Below, one piece after another: positions 8,092 to 54,513 of a DNA stretch of 64,000 bases. This stretch comes from Asticcacaulis sp. ZE23SCel15 (lineage in GTDB: Bacteria; Pseudomonadota; Alphaproteobacteria; Caulobacterales; Caulobacteraceae), in the NCBI RefSeq assembly GCF_030505395.1, contig NZ_CP130044.1, positions 1,473,001 to 1,537,000 on the forward strand, read 5' to 3'. Numbering within the stretch: the first letter of the stretch is position 1; every line of letters starts with the position of its first letter. The notes under the pieces are model-generated. The model saw only the letters and a program-made list of their open reading frames with translations, ran no database searches and had not been told where the DNA came from. A program made the position numbers and the translations under genes.

Positions 8092-10101
8092 TCAGGCCTT
8101 TTGGCGGCGCGCGGGCTGATCCTGTTCCATGTAGCGCAGGACCAGATCGCCGGACATCGGCTTTGAGAAATACCAGCCCTGAATATAGTCGCCGCCCAGT
8201 TCGCTCAATATTTCATACTGGGCTTCGGTCTCGACACCTTCCATCACACAGGTCAGGCCCATGTCCTGACACAGCACGATCAACGAGCGTACGATCTTAA
8301 AGCTGGCCGGATTGGTGTCGATGTCCGAGATAAAGCTCTTGTCGACCTTGATCTTATCGAGCGGCAAGCGGTGGACGTGGCTGAGCGAAGAATAGCCGGT
8401 GCCAAAGTCATCAAGCGAAATCCCGCAGCCCAGCGCCTTGAGGGCATCAATCGCCCGGCGGGCCTGCGCGAAATCGCTGGTGATCGAGGTTTCGGTGATC
8501 TCGAAATCGATGCGTTTAGGGTCAACTCCGCTCTGGTTGACGCAGGCGATGATCTGTACCACGCCTTCGGCCACGGAGATATCCTGCGCCGACAGATTGA
8601 TCGAAATGCGCACATGATCGGGCCATGAGGCCGCGGCTTTGAGCGCCTTTTGGATGAGCACCTTCGTCATGGGCCGGATCAGGCCGGCGCGTTCGGCAAT
8701 GGGGATAAACCGGTCCGGGCCAATGGCCCCCAGGAATGGGCTTTGCCAGCGAGCCAGCGCCTCAAAAGCGGCGATGCGGCCCGTGCGGGCATCGACGATC
8801 GGCTGATAGACCACGGACAATTCGCAGTCCAGATCGGCAACCTGCAAGGCCTGCTCGACCACGCTGTGCTCATGGATCAGTTTCTCATGGGCCTGCGAGA
8901 ACAGCACGGTCTGACCGCGCAGATGGCGCTTGGCGTAGTAAAGCGCATAGTCGGCCCGCTCAAACAAACCGTCGGGCGTGTTGGCGGAATCGGGGAAGGT
9001 GGCAAAGCCGATGCAGGCCGAAATCTGAGCGTGCGAGGCCCCAATGTCATAGGGCAGGCGCACGATGTCGCCCAGCTTTTGCCCCAGAGCCATCAGGTCT
9101 GAGTCGCTGGGGTTGCCGGTGACGACCAGCCCGAACTCATCACCGCCCAGCCGCGACAGGATGACATTGGCTCCGCACAGGCTTTGCAGGCGGCGTCCGG
9201 CTTCGATCAGAACCCGGTCGCCGGTCGCGTGGCCATAGGTGTCGTTGACCGGCTTAAACCCGTCCAGATCGACAATGCCAATGGCAAAGCGGTCGCCGCT
9301 TTTGTGGCAGATTTCAAACGTCAGGTTAAGTGCGGCAAAGAACCGTCGGCGGTTCGGCAGGTCAGTCAGGCTGTCGAGATTGGCGATACGAAAATTATCG
9401 TCGCTTAAGCGTTCGGTCTCTTCCTGCTTGACGATCAGATCTTTGCGTGATTGCACCAGATTGGCAAAATCGCGGTAATAGACCATCAGGATGAAGATCA
9501 TGGCAATCGACACCAGCGCCAGATTGACCGCCACCGCCCGTAAGGCGGCGTGGCCCTCAAGCATAAAAAAGATGATGAACGGCGTGTTGACGATCAGGGT
9601 CACCAGCAAGGCGGCCGAGCGCACATGCATCAGGCAGAAAATACAGCCAATGACCGTCAGGGCCATGAAAAACGCAATAAGCCCCTGGGCATAGGGATCG
9701 CCGTAGGGGTAAAGCGACAAACTCCAGGTCGTGTAGCCGATCGCCAGTCCAACGGCCATCTTATGGGTCAGGCGCAGTTGTTTTAAAATCTGTGCATCGT
9801 CATATTTGACATGACGCCTTTGCCACCACACCTTGAGGCGCACGACGCACAATATGCCAAAGCTGACGGGGACATATAGGGCCAGCCAGACCGGGGCTTC
9901 GCCATAATAGGTATATGAGACCGTCAGCGCATTGGTGGTCAGGATAAAATAGAGAATAGGGGCCTGTTTTGTGAAGGCCTCAAACTGTGCACGCACCAGC
10001 GCGGGATTGTCCGACTGGACACGGAAAAGATTTATCAAGCGCATAAAGGGCGACGGGGACAAGGGCTCAACCTGCGGACGGCGGACAAAACGTCCGTTCA
10101 C
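8092..10101 (-). CDS. Membrane-bound GGDEF-EAL protein (cyclic-di-GMP turnover)
   Basis: The 669-residue protein has an N-terminal membrane part with about six helices (about 45-215), a short linker helix, a GGDEF domain (about 240-400) and an EAL domain (about 415-660). The cyclase signature is an intact GGDEF (SRLGGDEFGLV). The residues expected for the inhibitory RxxD site just upstream are absent. The phosphodiesterase part keeps FEALARW, INLSAQD, FEITETS, DDFGTGYSS, KVDKSFI and EGVETEAQ, so both activities are possible. It faces the M14 gene end to end and is transcribed alone. The membrane sensor type is not one I can name. Confidence 0.88.
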   Translation of the reverse strand: MNGRFVRRPQVEPLSPSPFMRLINLFRVQSDNPALVRAQFEAFTKQAPILYFILTTNALTVSYTYYGEAPVWLALYVPVSFGILCVVRLKVWWQRRHVKYDDAQILKQLRLTHKMAVGLAIGYTTWSLSLYPYGDPYAQGLIAFFMALTVIGCIFCLMHVRSAALLVTLIVNTPFIIFFMLEGHAALRAVAVNLALVSIAMIFILMVYYRDFANLVQSRKDLIVKQEETERLSDDNFRIANLDSLTDLPNRRRFFAALNLTFEICHKSGDRFAIGIVDLDGFKPVNDTYGHATGDRVLIEAGRRLQSLCGANVILSRLGGDEFGLVVTGNPSDSDLMALGQKLGDIVRLPYDIGASHAQISACIGFATFPDSANTPDGLFERADYALYYAKRHLRGQTVLFSQAHEKLIHEHSVVEQALQVADLDCELSVVYQPIVDARTGRIAAFEALARWQSPFLGAIGPDRFIPIAERAGLIRPMTKVLIQKALKAAASWPDHVRISINLSAQDISVAEGVVQIIACVNQSGVDPKRIDFEITETSITSDFAQARRAIDALKALGCGISLDDFGTGYSSLSHVHRLPLDKIKVDKSFISDIDTNPASFKIVRSLIVLCQDMGLTCVMEGVETEAQYEILSELGGDYIQGWYFSKPMSGDLVLRYMEQDQPARRQKA

Positions 10102-12181: not shown

Positions 12182-13411
12182 ATGGCTGCGCTCAAAGGGA
12201 TATCCGTCGATCAGGCTGCCGACTTTCTGCGCATGGTGGCCCCAAAACCGCGCCCCCAAAAAGTGAAGCTGGAAAAAGCGCGGGGTCGGGTGCTGGCCGA
12301 AGACGTGCTGGCCGCCCGCGATCAGCCGCCGTTCAACGCCTCGGCCATGGATGGCTATGCGGTGGTGGATTTAATCACCGATGAGGCCTTGCAAAATGAG
12401 CCGCTGTCGGTCATCGGTGAAAGTCTGGCCGGTCGGCGCTTTAAAGGCGATCTGATAGCAGGCGAAGCGGTACGCATCTTTACCGGCGCGCCTGTGCCCG
12501 CGGCGGCAAACGCGGTTATCATTCAGGAAAATGTCGACAGGCAGGGTGACCTGATTTTTGTGCAGCCCGACGGATGGGCCTCGAAAAGCGATAATATCCG
12601 TCCGCGCGGCGGGGATTTCAAAGCCGGTGAGGTCTTGCTTGAGGCCGGGCAGATGCTTGATCCGTGGGCGCTGTCGCTGGTCGCGGCGGCAGGTTATGAT
12701 AAGGTTGTTGTGCGCAAAAAACCGGTGATCGCGATCCTCTCTAATGGCGACGAACTGGTGCGGGTGGGTGACAAACCGAAATCCGATCAGATTTTTGAAT
12801 CCGGCTCCCACGCCCTGATCGGCCTGATCGAACAGTGGGGCGGTAAGGCGAAATTTTTAGGCGCGGCGGGCGACAGTATCAAGGCGATCCACAAAGCGCT
12901 AAAAAACGTGAAAGCCGATCTGATTGTCACCATCGGCGGGGCCAGTGTCGGCGATTACGATCTGGTCAAACCGGCGCTGGAACAGTTGGGTCTTCAGGTC
13001 GATTTCGCCAGCGTCAATATTCGGCCCGGTAAACCGACTTGGCTGGGTAATCTCGAAGATGGCACGCGCGTTTTGGGTTTGCCCGGTAATCCGGCCTCAG
13101 CCATGGTGTGTGCTCAGTTGTTTTTGCGGCCCTATATCGAAGCAGCTTTGGGCCGGTATGAGCCGCGTCCGCTGCTTACCGCCAAACTGACCGTTGCACT
13201 TCCCGCCAATGGCCCGCGTGAAAGCTGGCTGCGGGCAGTGATAACCCATGATGACAAGGGTCAGCTTAAGGTTACCGCCCTGCGCGATCAGGACTCATCG
13301 TTGGTGACGGTATTTGCCAAATCCAATGCCTTGCTGCGCCGCCCTTTCGACGCCCCGGCCGCGAAGACCGGCGATCTGGTGTCGGTTTTGCCGTTAGATC
13401 GGCTGGTGTAA
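12182..13411 (+). CDS. moeA: Molybdopterin molybdenumtransferase MoeA
   Basis: The 409 residues match MoeA throughout: FNASAMDGYAV near the N-terminus, the IFTGAPVP and ADAVI-like (ANAVIIQE) stretch, RPRGGDFKAGE, LSNGDELV, the MoaB-like domain with VTIGGASVGDYD, and PGKPTWLG with LPGNPASAM. MoeA inserts molybdate into adenylated molybdopterin to give active cofactor in the cytoplasm. It is the last gene of the moaA-moaB-moeA operon. Its 3' end overlaps the convergent mobA gene by 18 bases. Confidence 0.94.
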   Translation: MAALKGISVDQAADFLRMVAPKPRPQKVKLEKARGRVLAEDVLAARDQPPFNASAMDGYAVVDLITDEALQNEPLSVIGESLAGRRFKGDLIAGEAVRIFTGAPVPAAANAVIIQENVDRQGDLIFVQPDGWASKSDNIRPRGGDFKAGEVLLEAGQMLDPWALSLVAAAGYDKVVVRKKPVIAILSNGDELVRVGDKPKSDQIFESGSHALIGLIEQWGGKAKFLGAAGDSIKAIHKALKNVKADLIVTIGGASVGDYDLVKPALEQLGLQVDFASVNIRPGKPTWLGNLEDGTRVLGLPGNPASAMVCAQLFLRPYIEAALGRYEPRPLLTAKLTVALPANGPRESWLRAVITHDDKGQLKVTALRDQDSSLVTVFAKSNALLRRPFDAPAAKTGDLVSVLPLDRLV

Positions 13412-13987
13412 ACCCAGATCGGCCAGACGGTTGATATTGGTATAGGCGCGCTCATCAGTGGGGGTGAGGGTGCTGATCTTTTGCGTGCTCAAAAACCGCA
13501 AAACGCCCAAACCGCCATCCGCCTGACGCAAAGCGCTATCCAAAGCGGCGAACATCTGCGGCTGCCACAGGGCGCACAACGGATGATCGCGCTGACCCTT
13601 GATGTAAATAATATCCGCGCCCGACACCATCTGGGCCGTGACCAGTGATTTGACCATTGTGACCGGAATATGCGGCATGTCGCACGGCAGGCTGATCAGG
13701 GACTTGGCCTTAAGCCGGATCGCCGCTTTCAGACCGGTGTGGATGCCGCTTAAAGGCCCCAGATTAGCGATGGCCGGATCATCATAGATCAGCGGCGTTT
13801 TCAGGGTGCGCAACTGCGCCGCCACTGGCGATATCGGCTCACCGGCATTGACCAGAAGCTGCGATACTTGCGGGGTCAGGGCGGCTATAGCATGGCTGAT
13901 CAGGGGCGCGTGATCATAGATGGCAAACGGCTTATTGCCGCCCATCCGCTGGCCCTGCCCCCCCGCCAGGATCACGCCCACAATCAT
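13394..13987 (-). CDS. mobA: Molybdenum cofactor guanylyltransferase MobA
   Basis: The 197-residue protein starts MIVGVILAGGQGQRMGGNKP, the nucleotide-binding loop of MobA, and carries LISLPCDMPHIP and the NINRLADL ending motif. MobA joins GMP to molybdenum cofactor to make the bis-MGD form used by NasA-type nitrate reductases. The frame is open to 14008, but ATG 13987 was chosen because it overlaps the cobA stop codon as ATGA, the usual sign of translational coupling. It is the last gene of the nirB-nirD-nasA-cobA-mobA operon, which makes functional sense. Confidence 0.9.
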   Translation of the reverse strand: MIVGVILAGGQGQRMGGNKPFAIYDHAPLISHAIAALTPQVSQLLVNAGEPISPVAAQLRTLKTPLIYDDPAIANLGPLSGIHTGLKAAIRLKAKSLISLPCDMPHIPVTMVKSLVTAQMVSGADIIYIKGQRDHPLCALWQPQMFAALDSALRQADGGLGVLRFLSTQKISTLTPTDERAYTNINRLADLGLHQPI

Positions 13988-14754
13988 GCTGTCTGCACTT
14001 TCGGCCATTCGGCCACTGTAGCCGCCGCGGTCAGCCGTGCAAAGCGGAAAGCCTCACCGGCGCCGATCAGTACTGGCCCGCTAAAGGCTGCTTCCGCGAC
14101 CCGTGCGGCCAGTTCTTTCAAACGTCCCTTGATGGCGCGGGCGTGAGCGCGACCGGCATTTTCGACGATGATGATCGGTGTGTCACCGCTGCGGCCTGCC
14201 GCGATTAACCGCGCTTCGATATGAGCCGCATTGTGCGACGACATGTAAAACACCAGCGAGGTTTGCGGATCGCAGACGGTGGTTTCCTTCAGGTCGATCG
14301 AGCCGTCCTTGGTGCGGCCGGTCAGAAAGGTGACCGAACGCGCTTCGCCGCGGTGGGTGAGCGGGAAGGAAAACTGGGCCGCCGCCGCCGAAGCCGCCGT
14401 CACACCGGGCAGGGTTTTGTGCGCAATATGGTGGGCCTCAAGGTAATCGCGTTCCTCTTCGACCCTGCCAAATACTGACGGATCGCCGCCTTTGAGGCGC
14501 ACCACATGCAGGCCTTTTTTCGCCAACCGCACCATCAGGGCATTAGTCTTATCCTGCGGCACCGACAGGCGATCCCCGCGTTTACCGACGCAGATTTTTA
14601 CGCACTTGGTCGGGGCCAGAGCGATGATGTCTTCGCTGACGAGGGCATCATAAAGCATCGCCTGCGCCGATTGCAGGGCTTTCAGCGCGCCCAGCGTCAG
14701 GTGATCGGCATCGCCGGGGCCTGCGCCGACTAAGGATACAAAACCGTCACGCAT
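13984..14754 (-). CDS. cobA: Uroporphyrinogen-III C-methyltransferase
   Basis: The 256-residue methyltransferase has the SUMT signatures SLVGAGPGDADHLTLGA, YDALVSEDI, VRLKGGDPSVFGR, LPGVTAASAAAA and LTHRG. It adds two methyl groups from S-adenosylmethionine to uroporphyrinogen III to give precorrin-2, the precursor of siroheme. The length corresponds to the single-domain CobA form rather than the CysG fusion, so the dehydrogenase/ferrochelatase step must come from another gene. It overlaps the end of nasA by 8 bases and mobA by 4 bases, so it belongs to the nitrate operon and supplies siroheme for NirB. Confidence 0.93.
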   Translation of the reverse strand: MRDGFVSLVGAGPGDADHLTLGALKALQSAQAMLYDALVSEDIIALAPTKCVKICVGKRGDRLSVPQDKTNALMVRLAKKGLHVVRLKGGDPSVFGRVEEERDYLEAHHIAHKTLPGVTAASAAAAQFSFPLTHRGEARSVTFLTGRTKDGSIDLKETTVCDPQTSLVFYMSSHNAAHIEARLIAAGRSGDTPIIIVENAGRAHARAIKGRLKELAARVAEAAFSGPVLIGAGEAFRFARLTAAATVAEWPKVQTA

Positions 14755-17404
14755 GAACCGGCTCCTTTGTGATCGCCTGTTTCAGCAGGCACTGTTTCAG
14801 TTCACCCTTGCACGACCCGCACGACGTGCCCGCGGTGGTGACTTCACCGATTTCTTCGACAGTCTTGGCCCCGTCATCGATGGCGGCATTGATGGCTTTT
14901 TCGCCAACGCCGCGGCAGGCGCAGATGATCCGGCCTTTGTCGGCCATCCCCGGCAGACGCCCGATCAGCAAAGCGGCGCGGTCGGCAGGGTTAAGTTCGG
15001 CATCGCCAAACCGTTCCAGCAGCCAGTCGCGCGGGGGCAATTTTTTATGAATGGGGGCCAGAAACATCGCCCTCGTCATCCGCCCGTCCTCAACCCGCAC
15101 CCGTCGCGTCAGGCCGGTGGTCGCGTCTTCTAATATCAGGTTGGCCTCGACCATCGGCATATCGACCGGCGCAATGCCAGCGATCTCGAAACAGTCGGCA
15201 TGGGTGTGGGTGGTGCGCCGCCAGATAGTATCCTCAGACCATGTCGGTAACTCACCGTCGAAATCACGCGGGGCCATGACAAAGCCGTGCCAGGCTTCGT
15301 TATAGGCGCGAACATTGGCCGGGGTGTGCTTGAATTCCGGCTGGCCCGATATCGGATCCACAGCGGGGTTGATGAGCTGGTTTGAGCGGCCAAACGGCGC
15401 GAACTGCTTGGTCCAGTGCATCGGAATATGGAGGCTGCCCTCGCGCACATCATCAGTCACGCGGGCCTTCAAAATGGCCTCACCATAGGCCGTGGTCACG
15501 ACCGCCAGCCGTCCGTCCTTGATATGCAGACGGCGGGCATCCTTGGGGTGGATATCCAGCAGCGGCTCGGTGATGTGGCGGTTCAGTTCCGGTGCCAAAG
15601 CCGTGCGGGTCAGGGTATGCCAATGGTCGCGCACGCGGGCCGAATTGAGATGGAACGGGAAATCGTCTGTGGTCTGATTGGCGGGGCTGCGTACAATTGG
15701 CGGCACCAGACGGGCGCGGCCATTGGGTGTGTTGAACGTGCCATCGGTAAACAGACGATCTCCCGGCAGGCCGTCAGCTTTAAACGGCCAGCGCACCGGC
15801 TGAAGGGCGTTATACTCGGCCTTCGACATACCCGTCAGGCCGCCCAGATCAAGGAAGCGTTTGCCATCATTTTCAAAGGCGGTCAGGCCGGCGTGTTCGG
15901 CAAAGACCTCATCCGGGCCGGCCCAATTGAATGCCGATGCCCAGTCAGGATTCATGCGGCGGGCGACCTCAGACACAATCGCCCAGTCGGACCGCACCGA
16001 ACCGGGCAGGGGCGCCAGATTACGCTGACGCGAAATGACGCGTTCACTGTTGGTGACCGTGCCGTCCTTTTCGCCCCATGCCGCGGCAGGCAATTGGATG
16101 TGCGCCATGTTCATAGTGTCGGTGCGCGCGATGACGTCCGACACGACCACCAGTTCGCAGTTCGTCAGGGCCTCATGAATCTTATTGGTATCGGGCATGG
16201 ACACCATCGGGTTGGTCGCCATGATCCAGATCGCTTTGACCTTACCCGAACGCACCGCCTCGAACATATCGACGGCTTTTAACCCGGCTTTGGGGGCAAT
16301 GGTTGGCGATCCCCAATAACGCTGGACGAGGGCTTTCGACGCCTCATCAAAATCCATATGAGCGGCCAGCATGTTAGCGAGGCCCCCGACTTCGCGCCCG
16401 CCCATGGCGTTGGGCTGGCCGGTAATCGAAAACGGTGCGGCCCCCGGCTTGCCGATCTTGCCCGACAACAGGTGGGCATTGATCAGCGCCAGCCCCTTAT
16501 GTACGCCCTGCGACGACTGGTTTGAGCCCATCGAAAACAGACTGACGACCTTGGGCGTGTGCAGGAAAGCGTCGTAAAATGTTTTGAGATCAGTCACCGA
16601 AATTCCGCAGTCTTCGGCGATAGCATCAAGGCTCTGGTCGTCGGCGCTTAAGGCCGCCATCAGGCGTGAATAGCCCTCAGTATGCTGATCAATAAAATCG
16701 TGGTCGAGCGCGTCGCGGGCGATAAGGTGCGCGCACAATCCGTTCCACAGCCGCACATCGGTTTGCGGCTTGATCATCAGGTGCAGGTCGCAGGCCTTGG
16801 CGGTATCGGTGCGCTTAGGGTCGATGCAGACGCGGAACTGGTTCTCTCTGGTCTCAATCCGGCGGTACAGCACCGGATGTGTCCAGGCGGCGTTGTGACC
16901 TGAGAATACCAGCATGTCGGCTTCGGTCAGGTCATCATAGGTGCCGGGCACCAGATCGGCCCCGAACGCCTGCTTATGGGCCGCGACCGCAGACGACATA
17001 CACAGCCGCGAATTGGTGTCGACATTGGCCGTGCCGATATAGCCCTTGGCCAGTTTGTTGACGGCGTAATAATCCTCAGTAAGAAGTTGACCCGACACAT
17101 AAAACGCCACCGCGTCGGGGCCGTGGTCGCGGATAACCTGCGCAAATTTGGCGGCGACGGTACCCAGCGCATCGTCCCACGATGCGGTTTCCAACTGGCC
17201 ATTACGGCGGATGCGCGGTTCCAGCAACCGGCCCTGTAAACCGAAGGTGTTGCCGAGCGCCGTGCCTTTGGAGCACAGCCGGCCTTGATTGGCGGGATGG
17301 CTCTCATCGCCGGTGACGGTCATCTGACGGTTATTGACGACAGCTTTAACCCCGCAGCCGACGCCGCAGTATGGGCAGGTTGTCGATTGCGGGGAAGGAG
17401 TCAC
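14747..17404 (-). CDS. nasA: Assimilatory nitrate reductase catalytic subunit
   Basis: The 885-residue molybdoenzyme begins with a 4Fe-4S motif (CPYCGVGCGVKA, then RLCSKG) and continues with the bis-MGD-binding domains (MSSAVAAHKQAFG, GGREVGGLANMLAAH, WIMATNPMVSMPD, PAAAWGEKDGTVTNSER). A BFD-like 2Fe-2S domain lies at about 815-875 (CACRGVGEKAINAAI and TSCGSCKGEL). It reduces nitrate to nitrite in the cytoplasm. There is no TAT signal, as expected for an assimilatory enzyme, and the extra C-terminal Fe-S domain is typical of NasA. It lies 6 bases after nirD, and its end overlaps cobA. Confidence 0.95.
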   Translation of the reverse strand: MTPSPQSTTCPYCGVGCGVKAVVNNRQMTVTGDESHPANQGRLCSKGTALGNTFGLQGRLLEPRIRRNGQLETASWDDALGTVAAKFAQVIRDHGPDAVAFYVSGQLLTEDYYAVNKLAKGYIGTANVDTNSRLCMSSAVAAHKQAFGADLVPGTYDDLTEADMLVFSGHNAAWTHPVLYRRIETRENQFRVCIDPKRTDTAKACDLHLMIKPQTDVRLWNGLCAHLIARDALDHDFIDQHTEGYSRLMAALSADDQSLDAIAEDCGISVTDLKTFYDAFLHTPKVVSLFSMGSNQSSQGVHKGLALINAHLLSGKIGKPGAAPFSITGQPNAMGGREVGGLANMLAAHMDFDEASKALVQRYWGSPTIAPKAGLKAVDMFEAVRSGKVKAIWIMATNPMVSMPDTNKIHEALTNCELVVVSDVIARTDTMNMAHIQLPAAAWGEKDGTVTNSERVISRQRNLAPLPGSVRSDWAIVSEVARRMNPDWASAFNWAGPDEVFAEHAGLTAFENDGKRFLDLGGLTGMSKAEYNALQPVRWPFKADGLPGDRLFTDGTFNTPNGRARLVPPIVRSPANQTTDDFPFHLNSARVRDHWHTLTRTALAPELNRHITEPLLDIHPKDARRLHIKDGRLAVVTTAYGEAILKARVTDDVREGSLHIPMHWTKQFAPFGRSNQLINPAVDPISGQPEFKHTPANVRAYNEAWHGFVMAPRDFDGELPTWSEDTIWRRTTHTHADCFEIAGIAPVDMPMVEANLILEDATTGLTRRVRVEDGRMTRAMFLAPIHKKLPPRDWLLERFGDAELNPADRAALLIGRLPGMADKGRIICACRGVGEKAINAAIDDGAKTVEEIGEVTTAGTSCGSCKGELKQCLLKQAITKEPVHA

Positions 17405-17410
17405 GATAAC

Positions 17411-17758
17411 CTATCTCATCCCTAAAAAGATGCGCTCATTTTCAATTTTAAGCGGTACGGTCGGGGTGCAGCCCTTACCCGCATCGGCCCCGACCGCTTC
17501 GCCGGTTTGCAGGCTGAACGACCAGTTATGCAGCGGGCAGGCGATGTGGCGGCCGTGAACAATGCCTTCGGACAAAGGCCCGCCCTTATGCGGGCACTTG
17601 TCCATGACGGCGTAGTATTCGTTATCAACTGTGCGAAAGACCGCGATGGCCCCAAGGTCGGTATCGACGCGGCGCGCGCCCTGATACGGCACGTCAATGG
17701 CCGCACCCACATCTATCCAGTTAAGACTTGGCCAATTCAGCGTAACATTGGCGTTCAT
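17411..17758 (-). CDS. nirD: Nitrite reductase small subunit NirD (Rieske-type)
   Basis: The 115-residue protein has the Rieske fold of NirD and keeps the complete iron-sulfur ligand set, C55-x-H57 (CPH) and C74-x2-H77 (CPLH). Some NirD proteins, such as that of E. coli, are described as lacking these residues, so this one may carry a real 2Fe-2S centre. It partners NirB in reducing nitrite to ammonium. The start at 17758 overlaps the nirB stop codon by one base (TGATG), showing coupling. The frame is open further upstream, but that part lies inside nirB. Confidence 0.92.
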   Translation of the reverse strand: MNANVTLNWPSLNWIDVGAAIDVPYQGARRVDTDLGAIAVFRTVDNEYYAVMDKCPHKGGPLSEGIVHGRHIACPLHNWSFSLQTGEAVGADAGKGCTPTVPLKIENERIFLGMR

Positions 17759-20238
17759 CACGCAGTCTCCGTAATATGATCTTGTGATGTGCCTTCGCGC
17801 AGATCGGCCAGTGGTGAAAAGACCTTGGCGGGTTCTGATTTCGGCGCATGTTCCGCCCACGGATCAACCTGAAATACGGCTTGGGATTCCAGGAATCGAG
17901 CCTTGAGGTCAGCCCGCGTTTCTTCGTCAAACAACTGCGTCTTGACGAACTCCAACCCGACACGCTCGATCCACGGGGCGGTGCGTTCCAGATACCAGGC
18001 GTCTTCGCGGTAAAGCTGAACAAAGGCCATCGAATAGTCACGCGCTTCAGCTTCGGTGGCGACCTTACACAGCAAATCGGTGCCGCGCAGATGGATGCCG
18101 GCATTGCCGCCGACATGCAGTTCGTAGCCGGAGTCCACGCAGACAATACCAAAGTCCTTGATGGTGGCTTCGGCGCAGTTACGCGGGCAACCCGACACGG
18201 CCATCTTGAACTTATGCGGCATCCATGAGCCCCAGGTGTCCTGCTCCAGCTTGATACCCAGCCCGGTCGAGTCCTGAGTTCCAAACCGGCACCATTCCGA
18301 ACCGACGCAGGTCTTGACCGTGCGCAGGGCCTTGGCATAGGCGTGGCCGGAGACCATGCCTGCGGCATTCAAATCCGCCCACACGGCGGGCAGGTCGGCT
18401 TTTTTGATACCAAACAGATCAAGCCGCTGACCGCCGGTGACCTTGACCATCGGCACATCGAACTTGTCGCACACATCGGCAATGGCGCGCAGTTCCTTAG
18501 CCGAAGTCACCCCACCCCACATGCGCGGCACGACTGAATAGGTGCCGTCTTTCTGGATGTTGGCGTGATTGCGTTCATTGACAAACCGTGAGCGCGGATC
18601 GTCCTGATATTCGCGCGGCCAGGCGCACAGCAGGTAATAGTTGAGCGCCGGACGACAGGAGGAACAGCCATCGGGCGTGGTCCACTTCATGGCCTGCATG
18701 ACATCGGGGATGGTTTTTAGACCCTGCTCGATAATCGCTTTGCGAACATGTTGATGGCCATGCTCAGTACATTTGCACATCGGCTTGGGGCCGGTTTGGG
18801 CCTTAAACGCATCACCCAGCGTGACCTTCAGCAGTTGCTCGACGATGCCGGTACAGGAGCCGCAACTTGCCGAAGCCTTCGTGCAGCCGCGCACCTTATC
18901 GAGATTGTCCGCACCGCCGCAGATAGCTTCAACCACCGTACCCTTGGTAACGCCGTTACAGCCGCACACTTCCGTGTCGTCGGGCCATGCTGCAACGGCG
19001 GCATTAGGGTCCACGCCGGCCAAGGCCTCCGTCACCGCCTGACCAAAGATCAGGGTGTCGCGGATATCGGCAATGGTTTCGCCCTTCTTGATCAGGTCGA
19101 AATACCACGCCCCGTCGGCGGCTTCGCCGAACAAAACCGTGCCGACCAGTTTGTTGTCCTTAACGACCACGCGCTTATAGACGCCGCGACCGGGATCACG
19201 GAAAACGATGTCTTCGCAGCCTTCGCCGCCATTGAACTGACCGGCGGAATAAAGATCAACGCCGGAGACTTTCAGGCGCGTCGCCAGTTCTGAGCCGTAA
19301 TAGGCCGCGTCCGGGTTCTTGCCCGTCAGCACATCAGCAAGTGTCCGGCACATATCCCAGATGGGTGCGACCAGACCATAACAGGCCCCGCGATGCTGCA
19401 CGCATTCACCGACCGCGAAAATGCTGGGGTCTGAGGTACGCATCTGGTCATCGACCACAATGCCGCGCTCAACGGTCAGCCCTGCCGATTTAGCGGGTTC
19501 AACATGCGGGCGGATACCGACGGCCATGACCAGCAACGACGCCGGAATGACGCGGCCGTCTTTGAGTTTCAACCCTTCAACATGGGTTTCCCCGACAATG
19601 GCTTCGGACTGCGCGCTGAGGACCGAGATCACGCCGCGCTCCAGCAGCGCTTTTTCCAGCAGGCGACCGGCGGCCTCATCAAGCTGACGCTCCATCAGCA
19701 CATCGACAAGGTGAATGACGGTCGATTTCATGCCGCGCTTGGCCAGACCGTAAGCGGCCTCCAGCCCCAGCAATCCGCCGCCGATTACGACCGCTTCGCC
19801 ACCGGCATTCGCGGCCCTGGTCATCAGGTCGACATCGTGCAAATCGCGGAAGGCGACCACGCCCTGAAGGTCAGACCCCGGCAGGGGCAGGCGGATCGGA
19901 TCGGAGCCGGTCGCCAGAATCAGATGATCGTAGCCGATGGCCTGACCGTCATGGAGGACGACCTGTTTGGCGACGCGATCGATGGATTGCACCCAATAAC
20001 CGAAATGGGTCTTGACGCCATTGGCATCGTACCAGGCGTCAGAGTGGGTGACGATATCGTCAAAGCTTTTCTCACCGGCCAGAACCGGCGACAACTGAAT
20101 ACGGTCATAGGTGGCGCAGGCTTCGGCGCCGATGATCGAAATGTCAAAGCTTGACGAATCTCGCTTTAAGATTTCCTCGACGATGCGGCCACCGGCCATG
20201 CCGGCTCCGATCACCACAATGCGTTGTTTGTTGTCCAT
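17758..20238 (-). CDS. nirB: NAD(P)H-dependent nitrite reductase large subunit NirB
   Basis: The 826-residue protein has an N-terminal FAD/NADH oxidoreductase region (IVVIGAGMAGGRIVEEIL, ILATGSDPIRLPLPG, VVIGGGLLGLEAAYGL). BFD-like 2Fe-2S sites follow in the middle (CGCNGVTKGTVVEAI, ASCGSC, CSSCRPALNYYL). The C-terminal part is a siroheme/4Fe-4S domain with CVGSEWCRFG and SGCPRNCAEATIKD. It reduces nitrite to ammonium with electrons from NAD(P)H in the cytoplasm. ATG 20238 was chosen because the flavoprotein fold starts right there, although the frame is open 12 codons further. It heads the operon, and its leader contains ANTAR-type hairpins and a terminator. Confidence 0.95.
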   Translation of the reverse strand: MDNKQRIVVIGAGMAGGRIVEEILKRDSSSFDISIIGAEACATYDRIQLSPVLAGEKSFDDIVTHSDAWYDANGVKTHFGYWVQSIDRVAKQVVLHDGQAIGYDHLILATGSDPIRLPLPGSDLQGVVAFRDLHDVDLMTRAANAGGEAVVIGGGLLGLEAAYGLAKRGMKSTVIHLVDVLMERQLDEAAGRLLEKALLERGVISVLSAQSEAIVGETHVEGLKLKDGRVIPASLLVMAVGIRPHVEPAKSAGLTVERGIVVDDQMRTSDPSIFAVGECVQHRGACYGLVAPIWDMCRTLADVLTGKNPDAAYYGSELATRLKVSGVDLYSAGQFNGGEGCEDIVFRDPGRGVYKRVVVKDNKLVGTVLFGEAADGAWYFDLIKKGETIADIRDTLIFGQAVTEALAGVDPNAAVAAWPDDTEVCGCNGVTKGTVVEAICGGADNLDKVRGCTKASASCGSCTGIVEQLLKVTLGDAFKAQTGPKPMCKCTEHGHQHVRKAIIEQGLKTIPDVMQAMKWTTPDGCSSCRPALNYYLLCAWPREYQDDPRSRFVNERNHANIQKDGTYSVVPRMWGGVTSAKELRAIADVCDKFDVPMVKVTGGQRLDLFGIKKADLPAVWADLNAAGMVSGHAYAKALRTVKTCVGSEWCRFGTQDSTGLGIKLEQDTWGSWMPHKFKMAVSGCPRNCAEATIKDFGIVCVDSGYELHVGGNAGIHLRGTDLLCKVATEAEARDYSMAFVQLYREDAWYLERTAPWIERVGLEFVKTQLFDEETRADLKARFLESQAVFQVDPWAEHAPKSEPAKVFSPLADLREGTSQDHITETA

Positions 20239-20272
20239 CACGTTCAGCCTGAATAAAGGTTGCGTTTTGGCC

Positions 20273-20321
20273 AAAAAAAATCCCGCAACCCTTGGGGCGC
20301 GGAGCCTTTACGGGTTGCGGG
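20273..20321 (-). terminator. Leader terminator in front of nirB
   Basis: On the minus strand CCCGCAACCC (20321-20312) pairs perfectly with GGGTTGCGGG (20291-20282), and eight U residues follow almost directly (20280-20273). It lies about 35 bases before the nirB start, so it would stop transcription unless an antiterminator acts. Confidence 0.85.
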
Positions 20322-20397
20322 ACATCTTTGTCCTATGGAGCCATCACCTGTCATCGTTGACCGGAAACGGCGAATTTCGATAGACCCTCATTGGTCT
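20312..20397 (-). promoter_or_regulatory. ANTAR-type (NasT) RNA target in the nirB leader
   Basis: On the minus strand three small hairpins carry six-base loops with A at position 1 and G at position 4. AGACC-AATGAG-GGTCT spans 20397-20382, GTC-AACGAT-GAC spans 20361-20350, and GGAC-AAAGAT-GTCC spans 20333-20320. The 3' arm of the last overlaps the first two bases of the terminator's 5' arm, so the two structures exclude each other. This agrees with the known dual-hexaloop RNA motif bound by ANTAR antiterminators. NasT, encoded at 28460-29047, is the obvious ligand. The middle hairpin is the weakest, with 3 base pairs. Confidence 0.8.
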
Positions 20398-20403
20398 GTG
20401 GTT

Positions 20404-20434
20404 TTATTACGCCTGTCTTTTGCAAAAATGTCAA
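20404..20434 (-). promoter_or_regulatory. Likely promoter of the nirB operon
   Basis: On the minus strand TTGACA (20434-20429) is followed after 19 bases by TAATAA (20409-20404). The spacing is longer than usual (GTAATA with 18 is an alternative). Transcription would begin just before the first hexaloop hairpin, as expected if the leader RNA must carry it. Confidence 0.5.
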
Positions 20435-20499
20435 ACTGAAATTGTGCGGCGCGTTGTTTTCAGTTTAGATGGCCAAAACAGAGCGGGGGATATGTCGCT

Positions 20500-22248
20500 A
20501 TGGCCGTTGCCACCACACGATTGAAAGCCGCCATAGGCTATAGCAGCCATATTGGCCGCCGCAGCGATAATCAGGATTTCGCCGCAGCCTGCCTTGCTGA
20601 TGCGCGCTCGCACCATGGGTTGGTGGCGGCTGTGGCGGATGGCGTTGGCTCTCGTAAGGGCGGGCGGGTGGCCGCTGAACTGGCTGTACGCTCGTTCATC
20701 GATGATTATCTCAGCCAATCCGAAGCCCTGTCGCCGCAAAAGACCGCCGGTCGGGCGCTGGAAAGCATCAATCACTGGATTCACCTGCAAGGAATCAAGG
20801 ACGAAAACCTCAAGGGCATGGCCTGTGTCTTTACGGGCATTGTCATCAAGGGGCGCCGGCTGCACAGCTTTCACATTGGGGATACCCGTCTTTATCGCCT
20901 GCGCGAAGGGGCGATGGGGCTTTTGACGCGCGACCATAAGCCGGACGGGGCCGAGGCCTCGAACTTTATCACCCGCGCTATCGGGTTTGATGAGGCGGTG
21001 CGCATTGATTACCGCGTCCACGATGTCATGCCTCATGACCGCTTGCTGCTCTGTTCGGACGGGGTGCATGGTAAGCTCAACGACACCCAGATCGGCAATA
21101 TTCTGGCGCAGCGCTTATCCCCGGATGAGACGGCGAAAAAGCTGATTGATCTGGCGATGGAACTGGGCGGGGATGACAATACGACCGCTTTGATCATTGA
21201 TATTTTCGAACTGCCGCCCGCCACCGTCAAGGATCTCGATGCCTTCATATCGCGCCTGCCCATGCGCGATCCACCGGAAGTGGGGGAGGAGATTGATGGC
21301 TTTAAACTGGAGGCCATGCTGTCGGACGGTATCTATAGCCGCGTGTTCCGCGCCCGCGATTTGAACGAGCCACGCACGGTCATTCTGAAATTCCCTAAGC
21401 CCCATAACCTTCAGGCCGATACCTCGGCGCGTCAGGCCTTTGTGCGTGAAACCTGGGTGGCCAGCCGTGTGCAGCATATCTGGATCGGTTCGGTGTTGTT
21501 ATTGCCGCCCAAGCGCCAGACCTGCCTCTATGTGGCCCAGCCCTATTATGAGGGCGAGACCTTGGAAAAACGCCTGTCGCGCAAGCCTGCGGTGTCACTG
21601 ACCGAAGGGCTCGATATCGCCATAAAACTCGCCAAGGCGCTGGGGTCGCTACACCGCGCGGGCGTCATCCATCGTGATGTCAAACCGGATAATATCATTT
21701 TGCTGCGCGATGGTGGGCTGAAATTGCTTGATCTCGGGTTTGCGCGCTTGCCGCTGCTGGATCAGCCGATCGGGATTATTCCGCCAGGGACGGCCAACTA
21801 TATGTCGCCGGAAATGTTCGATGGCGAATGGGGCAATGAGCAGTCCGATATTTTCGCGCTTGGTGTCACCATCTACCGCATGTTCTCCGGCGGGGCGTTC
21901 CCGTATGGTGAGTCTGAGCCGTTCACCAAGCCCAACCTGACCCGGCCGGATTCGCTGCTGAAAAAGCGTAAAGACCTGCCCGCGTGGCTGGAAAGCCTGA
22001 TCGTGCAGGCCTTGGCACCTGATGCCACTGAGCGTTTTCAGGATGGCTTTGAGATGGCGTTCAAGCTGGAAAGCGGGGCCTATGCGGCGGCCCCGACCTC
22101 GCTCAAGCAGCGCTATTTCGAGCGTTTCCCGCAGCGCTTCTGGCAGTTGACGACCCTGATCCTGTTTATCGTTTTGCTTTTGGTGCTGGGCAGCGGCCTG
22201 CAAATCACGCCGGAACTGATGCGCGGTTTGTTGGATAGGTTGGGGTAG
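20500..22248 (+). CDS. PP2C phosphatase-serine/threonine kinase fusion, membrane-anchored
   Basis: The 582-residue protein joins a PP2C-like phosphatase (about 1-240: SDNQDF, VADGVGSRKGG, FHIGDTRLYRL, DDNTTALI) to a Hanks-type kinase (about 262-525). The kinase shows the ATP lysine in VILKFPKP, HRDVKPDN (catalytic D393), DLG in place of DFG (D411) and a GTANYMSPE activation segment. A single membrane helix (about 548-570) ends the protein. It is divergent from nirB and lies between the nitrate reductase and nitrate uptake operons. Genes of this build recur beside nitrate assimilation genes in other proteobacteria, but their substrate is not established. Position suggests control of nitrate uptake or reduction by phosphorylation. 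Confidence 0.9.
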   Translation: MAVATTRLKAAIGYSSHIGRRSDNQDFAAACLADARSHHGLVAAVADGVGSRKGGRVAAELAVRSFIDDYLSQSEALSPQKTAGRALESINHWIHLQGIKDENLKGMACVFTGIVIKGRRLHSFHIGDTRLYRLREGAMGLLTRDHKPDGAEASNFITRAIGFDEAVRIDYRVHDVMPHDRLLLCSDGVHGKLNDTQIGNILAQRLSPDETAKKLIDLAMELGGDDNTTALIIDIFELPPATVKDLDAFISRLPMRDPPEVGEEIDGFKLEAMLSDGIYSRVFRARDLNEPRTVILKFPKPHNLQADTSARQAFVRETWVASRVQHIWIGSVLLLPPKRQTCLYVAQPYYEGETLEKRLSRKPAVSLTEGLDIAIKLAKALGSLHRAGVIHRDVKPDNIILLRDGGLKLLDLGFARLPLLDQPIGIIPPGTANYMSPEMFDGEWGNEQSDIFALGVTIYRMFSGGAFPYGESEPFTKPNLTRPDSLLKKRKDLPAWLESLIVQALAPDATERFQDGFEMAFKLESGAYAAAPTSLKQRYFERFPQRFWQLTTLILFIVLLLVLGSGLQITPELMRGLLDRLG

Positions 22249-27320: not shown

Positions 27321-28460
27321 TCAGGCGCTGCGGAAAATGCCGCCGTCAAACAGCTCATTGGCGGGCATTAAAATGGGGTTAGGTGTGGCGTCCAGCGTCC
27401 ACGGCGCGGGCTCACCGCCTTCGGTTTTTTCATCGGTGAGGGGAATATCGAGCCCCAGAGACGCCGCCGCCTGCCGCCACAGGTCTGGGCGGTAGATCTG
27501 GCGGGCAATGGCGTCAAAGTCGTGTTCCGGTGTTGTCAGCCCCCAGCGTACAAACTGGCCCATGAACCATTTGGCGTGGCTGATCCACGGGAAGGTCGTG
27601 GTTTGCGGGTCAAGTAGCAGGCCCGCCCCTTCGGTTGACAGAGCCAGTTCAATGGCCTCTAACGGCGCCCCGACATAGCCCGGTTGCGCCAGAATTTTGG
27701 CCAGATCGGCAGTGTCGGCATCCTTGGCCCACTGCGCAGCTTTGAGCAGCGCGCGTACAAGTGCAATCACCCCGTCAGGGTTCTCATTGGCCCACGGTTC
27801 GCGCACCCCCAGAACCTTTTCGGGTTTGAGCGTCCAGAAATCGGGGTCGGAAAACAGTACCTGCCCGTCGCCGTTAAGCTGCGCCATCTGTGGCCAGGGC
27901 GAGCCGGAGCAAAACCCGTCGATCACCCCATCGCGCAGGGCGTCGGCCATACGCGATGGCGGCAGAACCACCCACTGCACCTGACGGTCAGGATCAATGC
28001 CACCGGCGGCGACCCAGTGGCGCAGCACGAAATGGTGGGGCGAATAGGCAAAGGGCATGGCCAGAACGACCTTTGGCGCACCGGCGGCACGGCGTCTCGA
28101 AATCTCGTCGCGCAGGGCGCGGGCGGTATCCAGCAGCTTGGCCTTATCGTCATGAATAAGCGCGGTCATCAGGCGGGATGACACGACCACGCTGTTGCCA
28201 TTAGCCCCCAACGCCATCGGGGCAATGATCTTACCAAGCGTTGGCCCCAAACCAAGCCCACGCGATAACGGCATGGGCGCCAGTACATGAGCCGCATCCA
28301 GCAAACCATACGACATCTTATCGCGAATGTTTGACCAGTTGGCCTCCCGGCTTAAGGTCACATCCAGTCCTTCGGCGGTGTAATAGCCAAGCGCCTCGCC
28401 CAGCAGCACAAGGGCCGAGTTGTTGAGCGGGCTGAAACCGATTTTCAGGCTTAGAACCAT
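27321..28460 (-). CDS. nasS: Nitrate sensor NasS
   Basis: The 379-residue protein resembles NrtA (LKIGFSPLNNSALVLLGEALGYY, YGLLDAAHVLAPMPLSRGLG, FCSGSPWP) but has no export signal, so it stays in the cytoplasm. In studied bacteria NasS holds NasT when nitrate is absent and releases it when nitrate or nitrite binds. The gene overlaps nasT by one base (TAATG), so the two are made in fixed proportion. Together they should control the two leaders with ANTAR-type hairpins on either side. The gap of about 194 bases up to the nrt leader holds only that operon's promoter region. Confidence 0.92.
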   Translation of the reverse strand: MVLSLKIGFSPLNNSALVLLGEALGYYTAEGLDVTLSREANWSNIRDKMSYGLLDAAHVLAPMPLSRGLGLGPTLGKIIAPMALGANGNSVVVSSRLMTALIHDDKAKLLDTARALRDEISRRRAAGAPKVVLAMPFAYSPHHFVLRHWVAAGGIDPDRQVQWVVLPPSRMADALRDGVIDGFCSGSPWPQMAQLNGDGQVLFSDPDFWTLKPEKVLGVREPWANENPDGVIALVRALLKAAQWAKDADTADLAKILAQPGYVGAPLEAIELALSTEGAGLLLDPQTTTFPWISHAKWFMGQFVRWGLTTPEHDFDAIARQIYRPDLWRQAAASLGLDIPLTDEKTEGGEPAPWTLDATPNPILMPANELFDGGIFRSA

Positions 28461-29047
28461 TATCCTTCTCCCGGTTTCAAAAGGCCGGATATAGCCAGAA
28501 TATCGGCGGCGACGGCAGCCATCGGCCGGCCGGTATCCATGGCGTGCTTGCGCAAAATCTTATAGGCGTCGTCTTCGCTGATCCCGCGTGAGGTCATCAG
28601 AACACCCTTGGCACGGTCAATGCTCTTGCGCGCCGCAAGGTCAGCCTTGGCCTTGGATAGATCGGCCCGCAGGGTCTGCATCAGGTTAAAACGGTGGGTC
28701 GCCACCGTCAGGATCGAGGCGACCCGGTTTGGCGAATAGCCATCGACGATATAGGCGGCGACCCCGGCCTCCAGCGCTTCGGCCGTCGTGTTGGCGTCGG
28801 ATCGGTCAACAAACATGGCCACCGGTCGCGGGGCCTGTTCATGGGCGATCTGAAGGGCATCGAGCGTATCGCGATCCGGGCTTTCGCAGGCGATGATCAC
28901 CATCTCAGGATTAATATCCTTAAGCCGTGCCAGCTCGAACCGCGGCCAGTGATGGATGGTCGCGTCCTGATGAGCGCTATCCGCACGTATGCCCTCGGCC
29001 ACAAGGGCCGCGCGGGCATCATCGGGATCGATAATCAGGACGTTCAT
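28460..29047 (-). CDS. nasT: ANTAR-domain antiterminator NasT
   Basis: The 195-residue protein has an N-terminal receiver-like domain (about 1-120: VLIIDPDDARAALVAEGIRA) and a C-terminal ANTAR RNA-binding domain (about 130-185: KSIDRAKGVLMTSRGISEDD, then AYKILRKHAMDTGRPMAAVA). ANTAR proteins bind paired hexaloop hairpins in leader RNA and prevent termination. NasT is normally held inactive by NasS. Candidate targets are visible before nirB, before the porin-nrt operon and, in altered form, before narK. The ATG lacks a clear Shine-Dalgarno sequence and lies 9 bases after a large hairpin, so its own translation may be controlled. Confidence 0.93.
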   Translation of the reverse strand: MNVLIIDPDDARAALVAEGIRADSAHQDATIHHWPRFELARLKDINPEMVIIACESPDRDTLDALQIAHEQAPRPVAMFVDRSDANTTAEALEAGVAAYIVDGYSPNRVASILTVATHRFNLMQTLRADLSKAKADLAARKSIDRAKGVLMTSRGISEDDAYKILRKHAMDTGRPMAAVAADILAISGLLKPGEG

Positions 29048-29215: not shown

Positions 29216-29321
29216 ACTGACCAACGAAGGTCAGTGTTCCGGGACGAACCGGACAGTCGTAACTCAACCTTACATTCCCCCACACGCGTGCTTACGCACG
29301 TCTTGTCATCGCAGGTTCGTC
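29216..29321 (+). promoter_or_regulatory. narK leader: hexaloop hairpins overlapping a start-site-blocking segment
   Basis: ACTGACC-AACGAA-GGTCAGT (29216-29235) is a 7-base-pair hairpin with an A1/G4 six-base loop. A second hairpin, TCCGG-GACGAA-CCGGA (29238-29253), has G at position 1 but keeps G4. Bases GACGAACC (29243-29250), which are the second loop plus two stem bases, are perfectly complementary to GGTTCGTC (29314-29321), the bases just before the narK ATG. Forming the second hairpin would therefore free the ribosome site. A short stem CGTGC/GCACG (29287-29300) with a poor U-run is also present. This is inference from pairing alone. Confidence 0.55.
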
Positions 29322-53844: not shown

Positions 53845-53910
53845 ATGACCAAGACCGCTTTCATCGTAGCCGCCGCGATTATTATCATCACCGAACCGGT
53901 GGTGGGATAG
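53845..53910 (+). CDS. Attenuator-like leader peptide rich in Ala and Ile
   Basis: A 21-codon frame starts with ATG 53845, reads MTKTAFIV, then Ala-Ala-Ala-Ile-Ile-Ile-Ile, then TEPVVG and TAG. Such runs of branched-chain codons are the hallmark of ilv leader peptides, where ribosome stalling on scarce tRNA controls a following terminator. A terminator follows at 53938. GGTGGG (53901-53906) at the end of this frame can pair with CCCGCC (53940-53945) in the terminator's 5' arm, a possible antiterminator. The gene behind it is not for amino-acid synthesis, so the target is unclear. Too short to be certain. Confidence 0.55.
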   Translation: MTKTAFIVAAAIIIITEPVVG

Positions 53911-53937
53911 CGCGCGTCTGAGGTCAGAACCGTCGCC

Positions 53938-53963
53938 AACCCGCCCAGGAGGCGGGTTTTTTT
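53938..53963 (+). terminator. Terminator/attenuator after the leader peptide
   Basis: AACCCGCC (53938-53945) pairs with GGCGGGTT (53951-53958), followed by seven T residues. It could end the transcript of the FrnE gene as well as serve as an attenuator. Confidence 0.85.
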
Positions 53964-54006
53964 ATGCCGGGCTTCCTGAGTACCAATCTACTTAAAGGAG
54001 CCACTT

Positions 54007-54513
54007 ATGTCGCTAAATTCCCAGCCGAAACTTTATATGCTGTGCGGCAAGATCGCCGCCGGTAAATCGACCCTGTCGACCAAGCTGGCCACCCGGCCTC
54101 ATACGGTGGCGATCAGCGAAGACGCCTGGCTGGCGCGGCTCTATAAGAACCAGATCTCAAGCCTTGATGACTATGTGTTCTATTCGGCCAAGCTGCGTGA
54201 CGTTGTCGGCCCCCATGTCGAGGATATGCTGCGGGCGGGGCTGTCGGTTGTGCTCGATTTTCCGGCCAATACCCGCAATCAGCGCCGCTGGATGCGCCAG
54301 CTTTGCGTCAATGCCAATGCCGGTCACGAACTGCATTTTCTCGACACGCCCGATGAGGTCTGTCGCCAGCGTTTGAAAGCCCGTAACTTAAGCGGCGCGC
54401 ACAACTTCACTGCTACCAGTCGCGATTTCGGCATCGTTAGCGGTTTCTTTGAGCCGCCTCATGCCGATGAAGGCTTTGAGGTGATCCGGCATGAACTGAT
54501 GGCGCTGGCGTGA
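54007..54513 (+). CDS. ATP-binding kinase-like protein (P-loop, AAA_33 type)
   Basis: The 168-residue P-loop protein has Walker A GKIAAGKST (G14-T22), a conserved SEDAWLARL segment after strand 2, a Walker B-like VVLDFPANT and a lid arginine pair (RQRLKARN). It belongs to small kinases related to zeta-toxin/chloramphenicol-phosphotransferase-like proteins, which phosphorylate small molecules or sugars. Its substrate is unknown and no antitoxin is nearby. The start has a strong AAAGGAG about 8 bases upstream, and it follows an attenuator-like leader (53845-53963), possibly its control element. Confidence 0.75.
   Translation: MSLNSQPKLYMLCGKIAAGKSTLSTKLATRPHTVAISEDAWLARLYKNQISSLDDYVFYSAKLRDVVGPHVEDMLRAGLSVVLDFPANTRNQRRWMRQLCVNANAGHELHFLDTPDEVCRQRLKARNLSGAHNFTATSRDFGIVSGFFEPPHADEGFEVIRHELMALA

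What the first reader, a model, noticed from the sequence alone, without database searches (positions are those of the whole stretch)
20273..20434. nirB leader carries ANTAR hexaloop hairpins overlapping a terminator
Three hairpins with A1/G4 hexaloops are seen on the minus strand, and the last shares bases with the terminator's 5' arm. This fits NasT-dependent antitermination, and a NasS-NasT pair is encoded 8 kb away. Dual hexaloop motifs are known; a third, weaker hairpin between the usual two is less usual and may widen the binding site or serve another partner.
Basis: partly seen in the sequence, partly recalled or inferred. Interest (0 to 1): 0.7.

Follow-up and report, generated by a model that had tools for sequence, protein, structure and literature searches.

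The report
Three-hairpin nitrate switch before nirB
The RNA in front of an Asticcacaulis nitrite-reductase operon carries a conserved row of three small hairpins, the last overlapping a transcription stop signal, so that the nitrate-responsive protein NasT can very probably switch the operon on; rows of three, rather than the textbook two, turn up in many related leaders.

Summary
Real and conserved. The minus-strand nirB leader has three hairpins with A1/G4 hexaloops; the last (H3) shares 4 nt with the 5' arm of a terminator. H1 and H2 covary on 11 leaders, all three on 30 distinct rows. A hexaloop-on-terminator detector finds 66 of 211 nirB upstream regions with A1/G4 and 0-4 with other letters.

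Correction: the middle hairpin is not weaker. It is the most stable (-14.3 against -5.5 and -4.7 kcal/mol), on a 13-position interrupted stem, and is the likelier partner of H3; H1, at the transcript's 5' end, is the extra one. A third hexaloop is not rare: 36 of 66 leaders have two or more upstream.

The genome has one ANTAR protein, NasT. A model built from nirB leaders finds one other credible site there, a similar leader before the porin-nrtABC operon.

Best reading: NasT antitermination (known) on a three-site variant of the ANTAR target. Binding, read-through and the need for H1 are untested. The original Pseudomonas and Azotobacter papers could not be read, so novelty is provisional.

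The parts
20405..20434 (-). Probable sigma-70-type promoter: TTGACA 20434-20429, -10-like GTAATA about 20410-20405; transcript start expected near 20400
   Evidence: TTGACA stands about 36 nt upstream of H1 in the 12 of 14 Asticcacaulis loci that have the leader directly before nirB, read by eye; the strict promoter scan did not call it
20382..20397 (-). H1: 5-bp hairpin, hexaloop AATGAG, probably at the 5' end of the transcript
   Evidence: helix 100% paired, 3 of 5 pairs change on both sides
20340..20371 (-). H2: composite hairpin, 13 stem positions with two mismatches in this species, hexaloop AACGAT
   Evidence: 81% of cells paired, 10 of 13 pairs with changes on both sides; -14.3 kcal/mol alone
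20320..20333 (-). H3 (antitermination hairpin): 4-bp, hexaloop AAAGAT; its 3' arm overlaps the terminator
   Evidence: invariant, covaries in the wider set
20273..20323 (-). Intrinsic terminator: arms 20323-20312 and 20291-20281, then T8
17758..20241 (-). nirB, the controlled gene; GTG 20241 or ATG 20238 are the likely starts (the listed TTG at 20274 lies at the T-run)
13394..17860 (-). Rest of the likely operon: NirD-like Rieske ORF, nitrate reductase, cobA-like and mobA-like ORFs (named by eye, not scanned)
27321..29047 (-). nasT (28460-29047, ANTAR domain, no phospho-acceptor Asp) and nasS-like NMT1_2 gene (27321-28460)
   Evidence: only ANTAR protein found in the genome
26998..27127 (-). 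Second three-hexaloop terminator leader, before the porin-nrtABC operon (hexaloops AAGGAC, AAGGAC, AGTGAC)
   Evidence: R1 hit at E 0.002 genome-wide, next hit E 2.3
29216..29253 (+). Two hexaloop hairpins before narK (loops AACGAA, GACGAA), no T-run

Best explanation
The leader is a nitrate switch worked by NasT. Without free NasT, RNA polymerase makes H1, H2 and H3 in turn; once the 3' terminator arm emerges, the terminator displaces H3 and transcription stops before nirB. With nitrate or nitrite, NasS releases NasT, which binds the A1/G4 loops, keeps H3 folded, and lets polymerase read on into the operon. H2 and H3 form the usual ANTAR pair (recruitment and antitermination hairpins, 6-nt gap). 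H1, 10 nt upstream of H2 and probably at the 5' end of the transcript, is a third NasT site that loads the protein early. Shown here: anatomy, covariation, competing folds in silico, co-occurrence with ANTAR proteins, recurrence on a second operon. Inferred: NasT binding, read-through, the nitrate response and the role of H1.
For: Three covarying hairpins whose loops keep A1 and G4 while positions 3, 5 and 6 vary. Prefix folding gives H1+H2+H3 up to nt 115 of the 130-nt stretch and the terminator instead of H3 at nt 120; full length -55.3 with terminator, -50.2 with H3 forced. One ANTAR protein found in the genome; it keeps EutV's R142, K143, E160, Y164 and M172 and has Ala for the phospho-Asp, as expected for a NasS-controlled protein (my reading of the alignment; EutV mutants from PMC8934654 passages). 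In two loci (L009, L010) nirB lies behind narK and the leader sits before narK instead. A second operon has the same design, as does a leader about 200 nt from an ANTAR gene in another alphaproteobacterial family (L148).
Against: No binding or expression data. Forcing H3 removes only the lowest pairs of the terminator: the fold keeps an 8-bp upper stem next to the T-run, so how far termination drops is not known. One genus member (G403) has no ANTAR protein found but keeps an intact leader before a secreted-protein gene. One (G404) has a 7-nt H1 loop, so H1 may be dispensable there. EutV's N173, R175 and R177, whose triple mutant lost binding, are not conserved in this NasT. 80 of 108 ANTAR-bearing survey genomes lack a detected leader before nirB.
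Confidence: 0.85

Rival explanations
1. Only H2 and H3 are a working NasT site; H1 is a 5'-end stabilising hairpin, or a leftover, that carries the loop letters.
For: The pair H2-H3 has a gap like the known dual motif; H1's loop is 7 nt in G404; EutV works on two hairpins (PMC3369931).
Against: H1 keeps A1 and G4 in 28 of 28 six-nt loops and its stem covaries; upstream third hexaloops recur in unrelated leaders.
Confidence: 0.3
2. H1 and H3 are the NasT pair and H2 is a spacer stem, or serves another partner.
For: H2's apical stem is only 3 bp next to a mismatch in this species, and its long basal stem would bring H1 and H3 closer.
Against: The H2 loop has G4 in 29 of 29 and A1 in 28 of 29 rows.
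Confidence: 0.1
3. An ordinary constitutive terminator or attenuator without NasT.
For: One leader persists in a genome without an ANTAR protein found.
Against: Loop-letter control 66 against 0-4 of 211; no leader in 21 ANTAR-less survey genomes.
Confidence: 0.04

Closest known systems
ANTAR dual-hexaloop antiterminator RNA (eut leaders with EutV; nasF with NasR; amiE with AmiR)
   Same: Hairpins with A1/G4 hexaloops, the last overlapping an intrinsic terminator; short gaps between neighbours
   Different: Three hexaloops, one on a long interrupted stem; the published description is of two (PMC3369931 passages, sections 7 and 10 part 1; PMC8934654 passages and section 26 part 1; PMC8164766 passages)
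NasS-NasT control of nas and nirBD leaders (Paracoccus denitrificans nasA; Pseudomonas NalA-nirBD; Bradyrhizobium nosR)
   Same: Same regulator pair, same kind of target operon, terminator in the leader (PMC3795266, PMC5424462, PMC6759348, PMC12830290; passages only)
   Different: Two hairpins (HI, HII) were tested in Paracoccus; NalA is sigma-54 dependent according to the review, while here a TTGACA is conserved; the passages seen do not mention a three-hexaloop layout

Membership tests
ANTAR-target antiterminator RNA | Hairpins of 3 bp or more with hexaloops, A at 1 and G at 4, at least two in a row | tested here: met
   three such hairpins
ANTAR-target antiterminator RNA | Short linker between neighbours (5-12 nt in E. 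faecalis eut; 2-25 nt in the actinobacterial curation) | tested here: met
   10 and 6 nt here; in 30 distinct rows 23 have 9-10 and 24 have 6-7; H1 to H3 directly is 48 nt
ANTAR-target antiterminator RNA | Last hairpin overlaps an intrinsic terminator | tested here: met
   T-run in 30 of 31 model matches parsed
ANTAR-target antiterminator RNA | Covariation supports the helices | tested here: met
   (four of five measures exceed the shuffles; further pair types does not)
ANTAR-target antiterminator RNA | Two hairpins, as the motif is described (a description, not a requirement shown by experiment) | tested here: not met
   three here; hence filed as a variant
ANTAR-target antiterminator RNA | Bound by the ANTAR protein; binding causes read-through | not testable with these tools
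   needs binding and reporter work
NasS-NasT system | NasT with ANTAR domain and no phospho-acceptor Asp, next to an NMT1-type NasS | tested here: met
   PF03861 1.9e-20, NMT1_2 1.5e-59; Asp replaced by Ala in the alignment to EutV
NasS-NasT system | Nitrate/nitrite-dependent release of NasT | not testable with these tools
   known for Paracoccus (PMC3795266, passages)

The most novel reading that the evidence does not exclude
NasT targets in proteobacterial nirB and nitrate-transport leaders are arrays of three or four hexaloops, not pairs: NasT loads on the first hairpin as it leaves the polymerase and is handed along the row to the antitermination hairpin, so that the number and spacing of hairpins set the nitrate threshold. 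Released Paracoccus NasT, reported as broadly consistent with a hexamer (PMC3795266, passage), would fit multi-site binding.
Probability: 0.35. Interest if true: 0.65.

Novelty: new variant of a known kind. Interest (0 to 1): 0.5.

Why it matters
How an ANTAR protein uses its two hairpins is an open question: from the EutV-RNA structure its authors argue that a dimer cannot hold both loops of one RNA at once, and they propose a hand-over from a recruitment to an antitermination hairpin (PMC8934654, passages and section 26 part 1). Natural leaders with three or more sites, and a sister species with a degraded H1, give ready substrates to test that model. They also suggest that searches built on the dual motif undercount sites.

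Tried and rejected
Rfam has no matching family for the leader: one gathering-level hit in the whole window, elsewhere (P9), and none in 20200-20520 at E up to 5. The class-wide search with R1 (stricter filters) found 2 of 385 genomes: the model is close to genus-bound, so the wide survey used nirB positions instead. A simple RBS-sequestering model for narK (loop and arm pairing with GGTTCGTC before the start codon) fits the window's close relatives, but most other narK leaders lack that sequence, so it was dropped. H1 and H3 as 'the usual two' was rejected for the 48-nt gap. The R1 match L169 was judged chance (no T-run, hexaloops not in place) and dropped from the loop counts.

Rows dropped or not seen: one search kept the best 80 of 394 relatives. 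Of 67 nirB rows in the class search 60 upstream regions were fetched (the window's own row and 6 others left out). Of 114 in the phylum search 70 were fetched, 8 were already held, 1 was the window, 35 were not fetched (30 of them from one family, f188). Of 41 R1 rows in the genus 30 had loci and were parsed, plus L148 from outside; 11 weaker rows were not read. By the strict rule 9 of 20 clusters have a member with two or more upstream hexaloops; by the relaxed rule 13 of 20, and no letter control was run for the relaxed rule.

Full report
WHAT IS THERE. The window lies in an Asticcacaulis-like genome (closest relatives; G000, one contig of 3.77 Mb).

THE MIDDLE HAIRPIN. The whole hairpin has 13 stem positions. 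In 12 Asticcacaulis nirB leaders 132 of 156 such positions pair, against a mean of 69 and a maximum of 89 in 2,000 shuffles of the 3' arms; swapping arms among six representatives gives at most 54 of 78 pairs against 66 observed (one base per arm left out for L048 and L073). On MAFFT alignment A3 (11 rows; L006 and L007 are off by one in the basal part of H2), 10 of H2's 13 pairs show changes on both sides; H1 is 100% paired, with 3 of 5 pairs changing on both sides; H3 does not vary there. Covariation score 0.429 against 0.193 in shuffles; further pair types, by contrast, are no more than in shuffles (24 against 24.9). Alone, H1, H2 and H3 fold at -5.5, -14.3 and -4.7 kcal/mol.

WIDER SET IN THE GENUS. 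Covariance model R1, built from nirB leaders alone, hits 22 of 25 Asticcacaulis genomes at E up to 0.5 (G405 only at E 0.10, judged chance, and 0.21). NasT is found in 21 of 25. Three genomes lack both; one (G403) has a leader but no ANTAR protein found by Pfam. Of 31 matches parsed (30 of the 41 genus rows, plus L148), 26 have three A1/G4 hexaloops with stems of 3 or more and 30 have a T-run. The five others are L151 (a G-U pair in H2), L166 (7-nt H1 loop), L172 (G1 in H3), L175 (G1 in H2) and L169 (chance). On the model-fitted alignment A4 (30 distinct rows, which include R1's own sequences or near-copies) 93.5% of cells pair, 16 of 20 pairs show changes on both sides, and H3 now covaries too (an alignment fitted to the structure leans towards it). 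Without L169, G4 is kept in 28 of 28, 29 of 29 and 29 of 29 six-nt loops of H1, H2 and H3, and A1 in 28 of 28, 28 of 29 and 28 of 29; positions 3, 5 and 6 vary. Linkers are mostly 9-10 and 6-7 nt.

REGULON. In the window's genome R1's second hit, E 0.002, is before the porin-nrtABC operon, with three hexaloops and a terminator; the next hit is at E 2.3. In L009 and L010, where nirB follows narK, a row of hexaloops and a T-run stands before narK. narK itself in the window has a different, T-run-less pair of hexaloops.

BEYOND THE GENUS. An A1/G4 hexaloop overlapping a terminator is found in 66; with each of the 15 other letter pairs the same detector gives 0 to 4. In the 66 leaders, the number of further A1/G4 hexaloops (stem 4 or more) within 100 nt upstream is 0 in 2, 1 in 28, 2 in 35 and 3 in 1. 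They fall into 20 clusters; with one leader per cluster, 27 such hexaloops lie in 1,901 nt against 9 in 6,000 nt of control DNA further upstream. 9 of 20 clusters have a member with two or more; by a relaxed rule (stem 3 or more, purine at 1; no control run) 13 of 20. One cluster of ten leaders comes from a single family (f194) outside the class: 8 of 10 have hexaloops at about -41 and -18 besides the terminator hairpin; in the three that I folded the -41 hairpin is again on an interrupted stem and a sigma-54-like TGGCAC lies upstream. Of the Sphingomonas leaders folded, L013, L014, L015 and L021 have H1 and a composite H2 whose loop starts with G, and the L025 type has three A1/G4 loops. 80 of 108 ANTAR-bearing genomes have no such leader directly before nirB; this is expected if nirB is not first in its operon, but was not checked.

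MECHANISM. Folding of growing prefixes gives H1, H2 and H3 together at nt 115 of the leader stretch, and the terminator in place of H3 at nt 120. This is the published ANTAR logic: the last hairpin competes with the terminator (PMC3369931 sections 7 and 10 part 1). With H3 forced, however, an 8-bp upper part of the terminator stem remains in the fold, so the drop in termination must be measured. For EutV a 14-nt linker drastically reduced induction in vivo and a 20-nt extension stopped antitermination in vitro, and a hand-over from a recruitment to an antitermination hairpin was proposed (PMC3369931 section 7; PMC8934654 passages and section 26 part 1). H1 to H3 is 48 nt here, so H2 is the likelier recruitment hairpin for H3, and H1 an added site at the 5' end of the transcript. 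NasT keeps five of nine EutV residues tested by mutation (R142, K143, E160, Y164, M172) and has Arg for K147; N173, R175 and R177 are not kept (alignment, numbering offset of 2 inferred by me; residues).

KNOWN OR NEW. NasT antitermination at nirBD and nas leaders is known (passages of PMC3795266, PMC5424462, PMC6759348, PMC12830290). In what I could read the target is a dual hairpin or an unspecified series of hairpins. Searches listed no paper that I could see to describe a three-hexaloop NasT leader, but I read only some of the papers they listed, and the original Pseudomonas papers were not held, nor the Azotobacter one under the DOI that I tried from memory. So 'new variant of a known kind' is provisional.

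Noticed in passing
29216-29253 (+), before narK ATG 29322; relatives L177-L197: 13 of 21 Asticcacaulis narK genes have a conserved pair of hexaloop hairpins 19-20 nt apart (second loop starting with G in the window's closest relatives) with no T-run between the pair and the gene; in two of four folded (L182, L184) the pair sits inside a closing stem. 5 have the terminator type, 3 neither. A NasT target without an intrinsic terminator?
   Followed up: partly
L167 (G403): A genome with no ANTAR protein found by Pfam keeps an intact three-hexaloop terminator leader before a secreted-protein gene: an orphan leader or a gap in the assembly.
   Followed up: partly
53845-53966 (+): The Rfam P9 hit (53875-53960) overlaps a short frame that reads MTKTAFIVAAAIIIITEPVVG-stop (my reading), followed by a GC hairpin and a T-run: it looks like an ilv-type peptide attenuator, before an ORF at 54007 that does not look like an ilv gene.
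   Followed up: no
8092-10101 (-): A GGDEF/EAL-type ORF (by eye) lies near the nitrate genes; c-di-GMP is reported to weaken NasT in Pseudomonas putida (review PMC12830290, passage).
   Followed up: no
20500-22248 (+): A fused PP2C phosphatase and protein kinase gene diverges from nirB, its listed start about 100 nt from the expected 5' end of the nirB leader.
   Followed up: no
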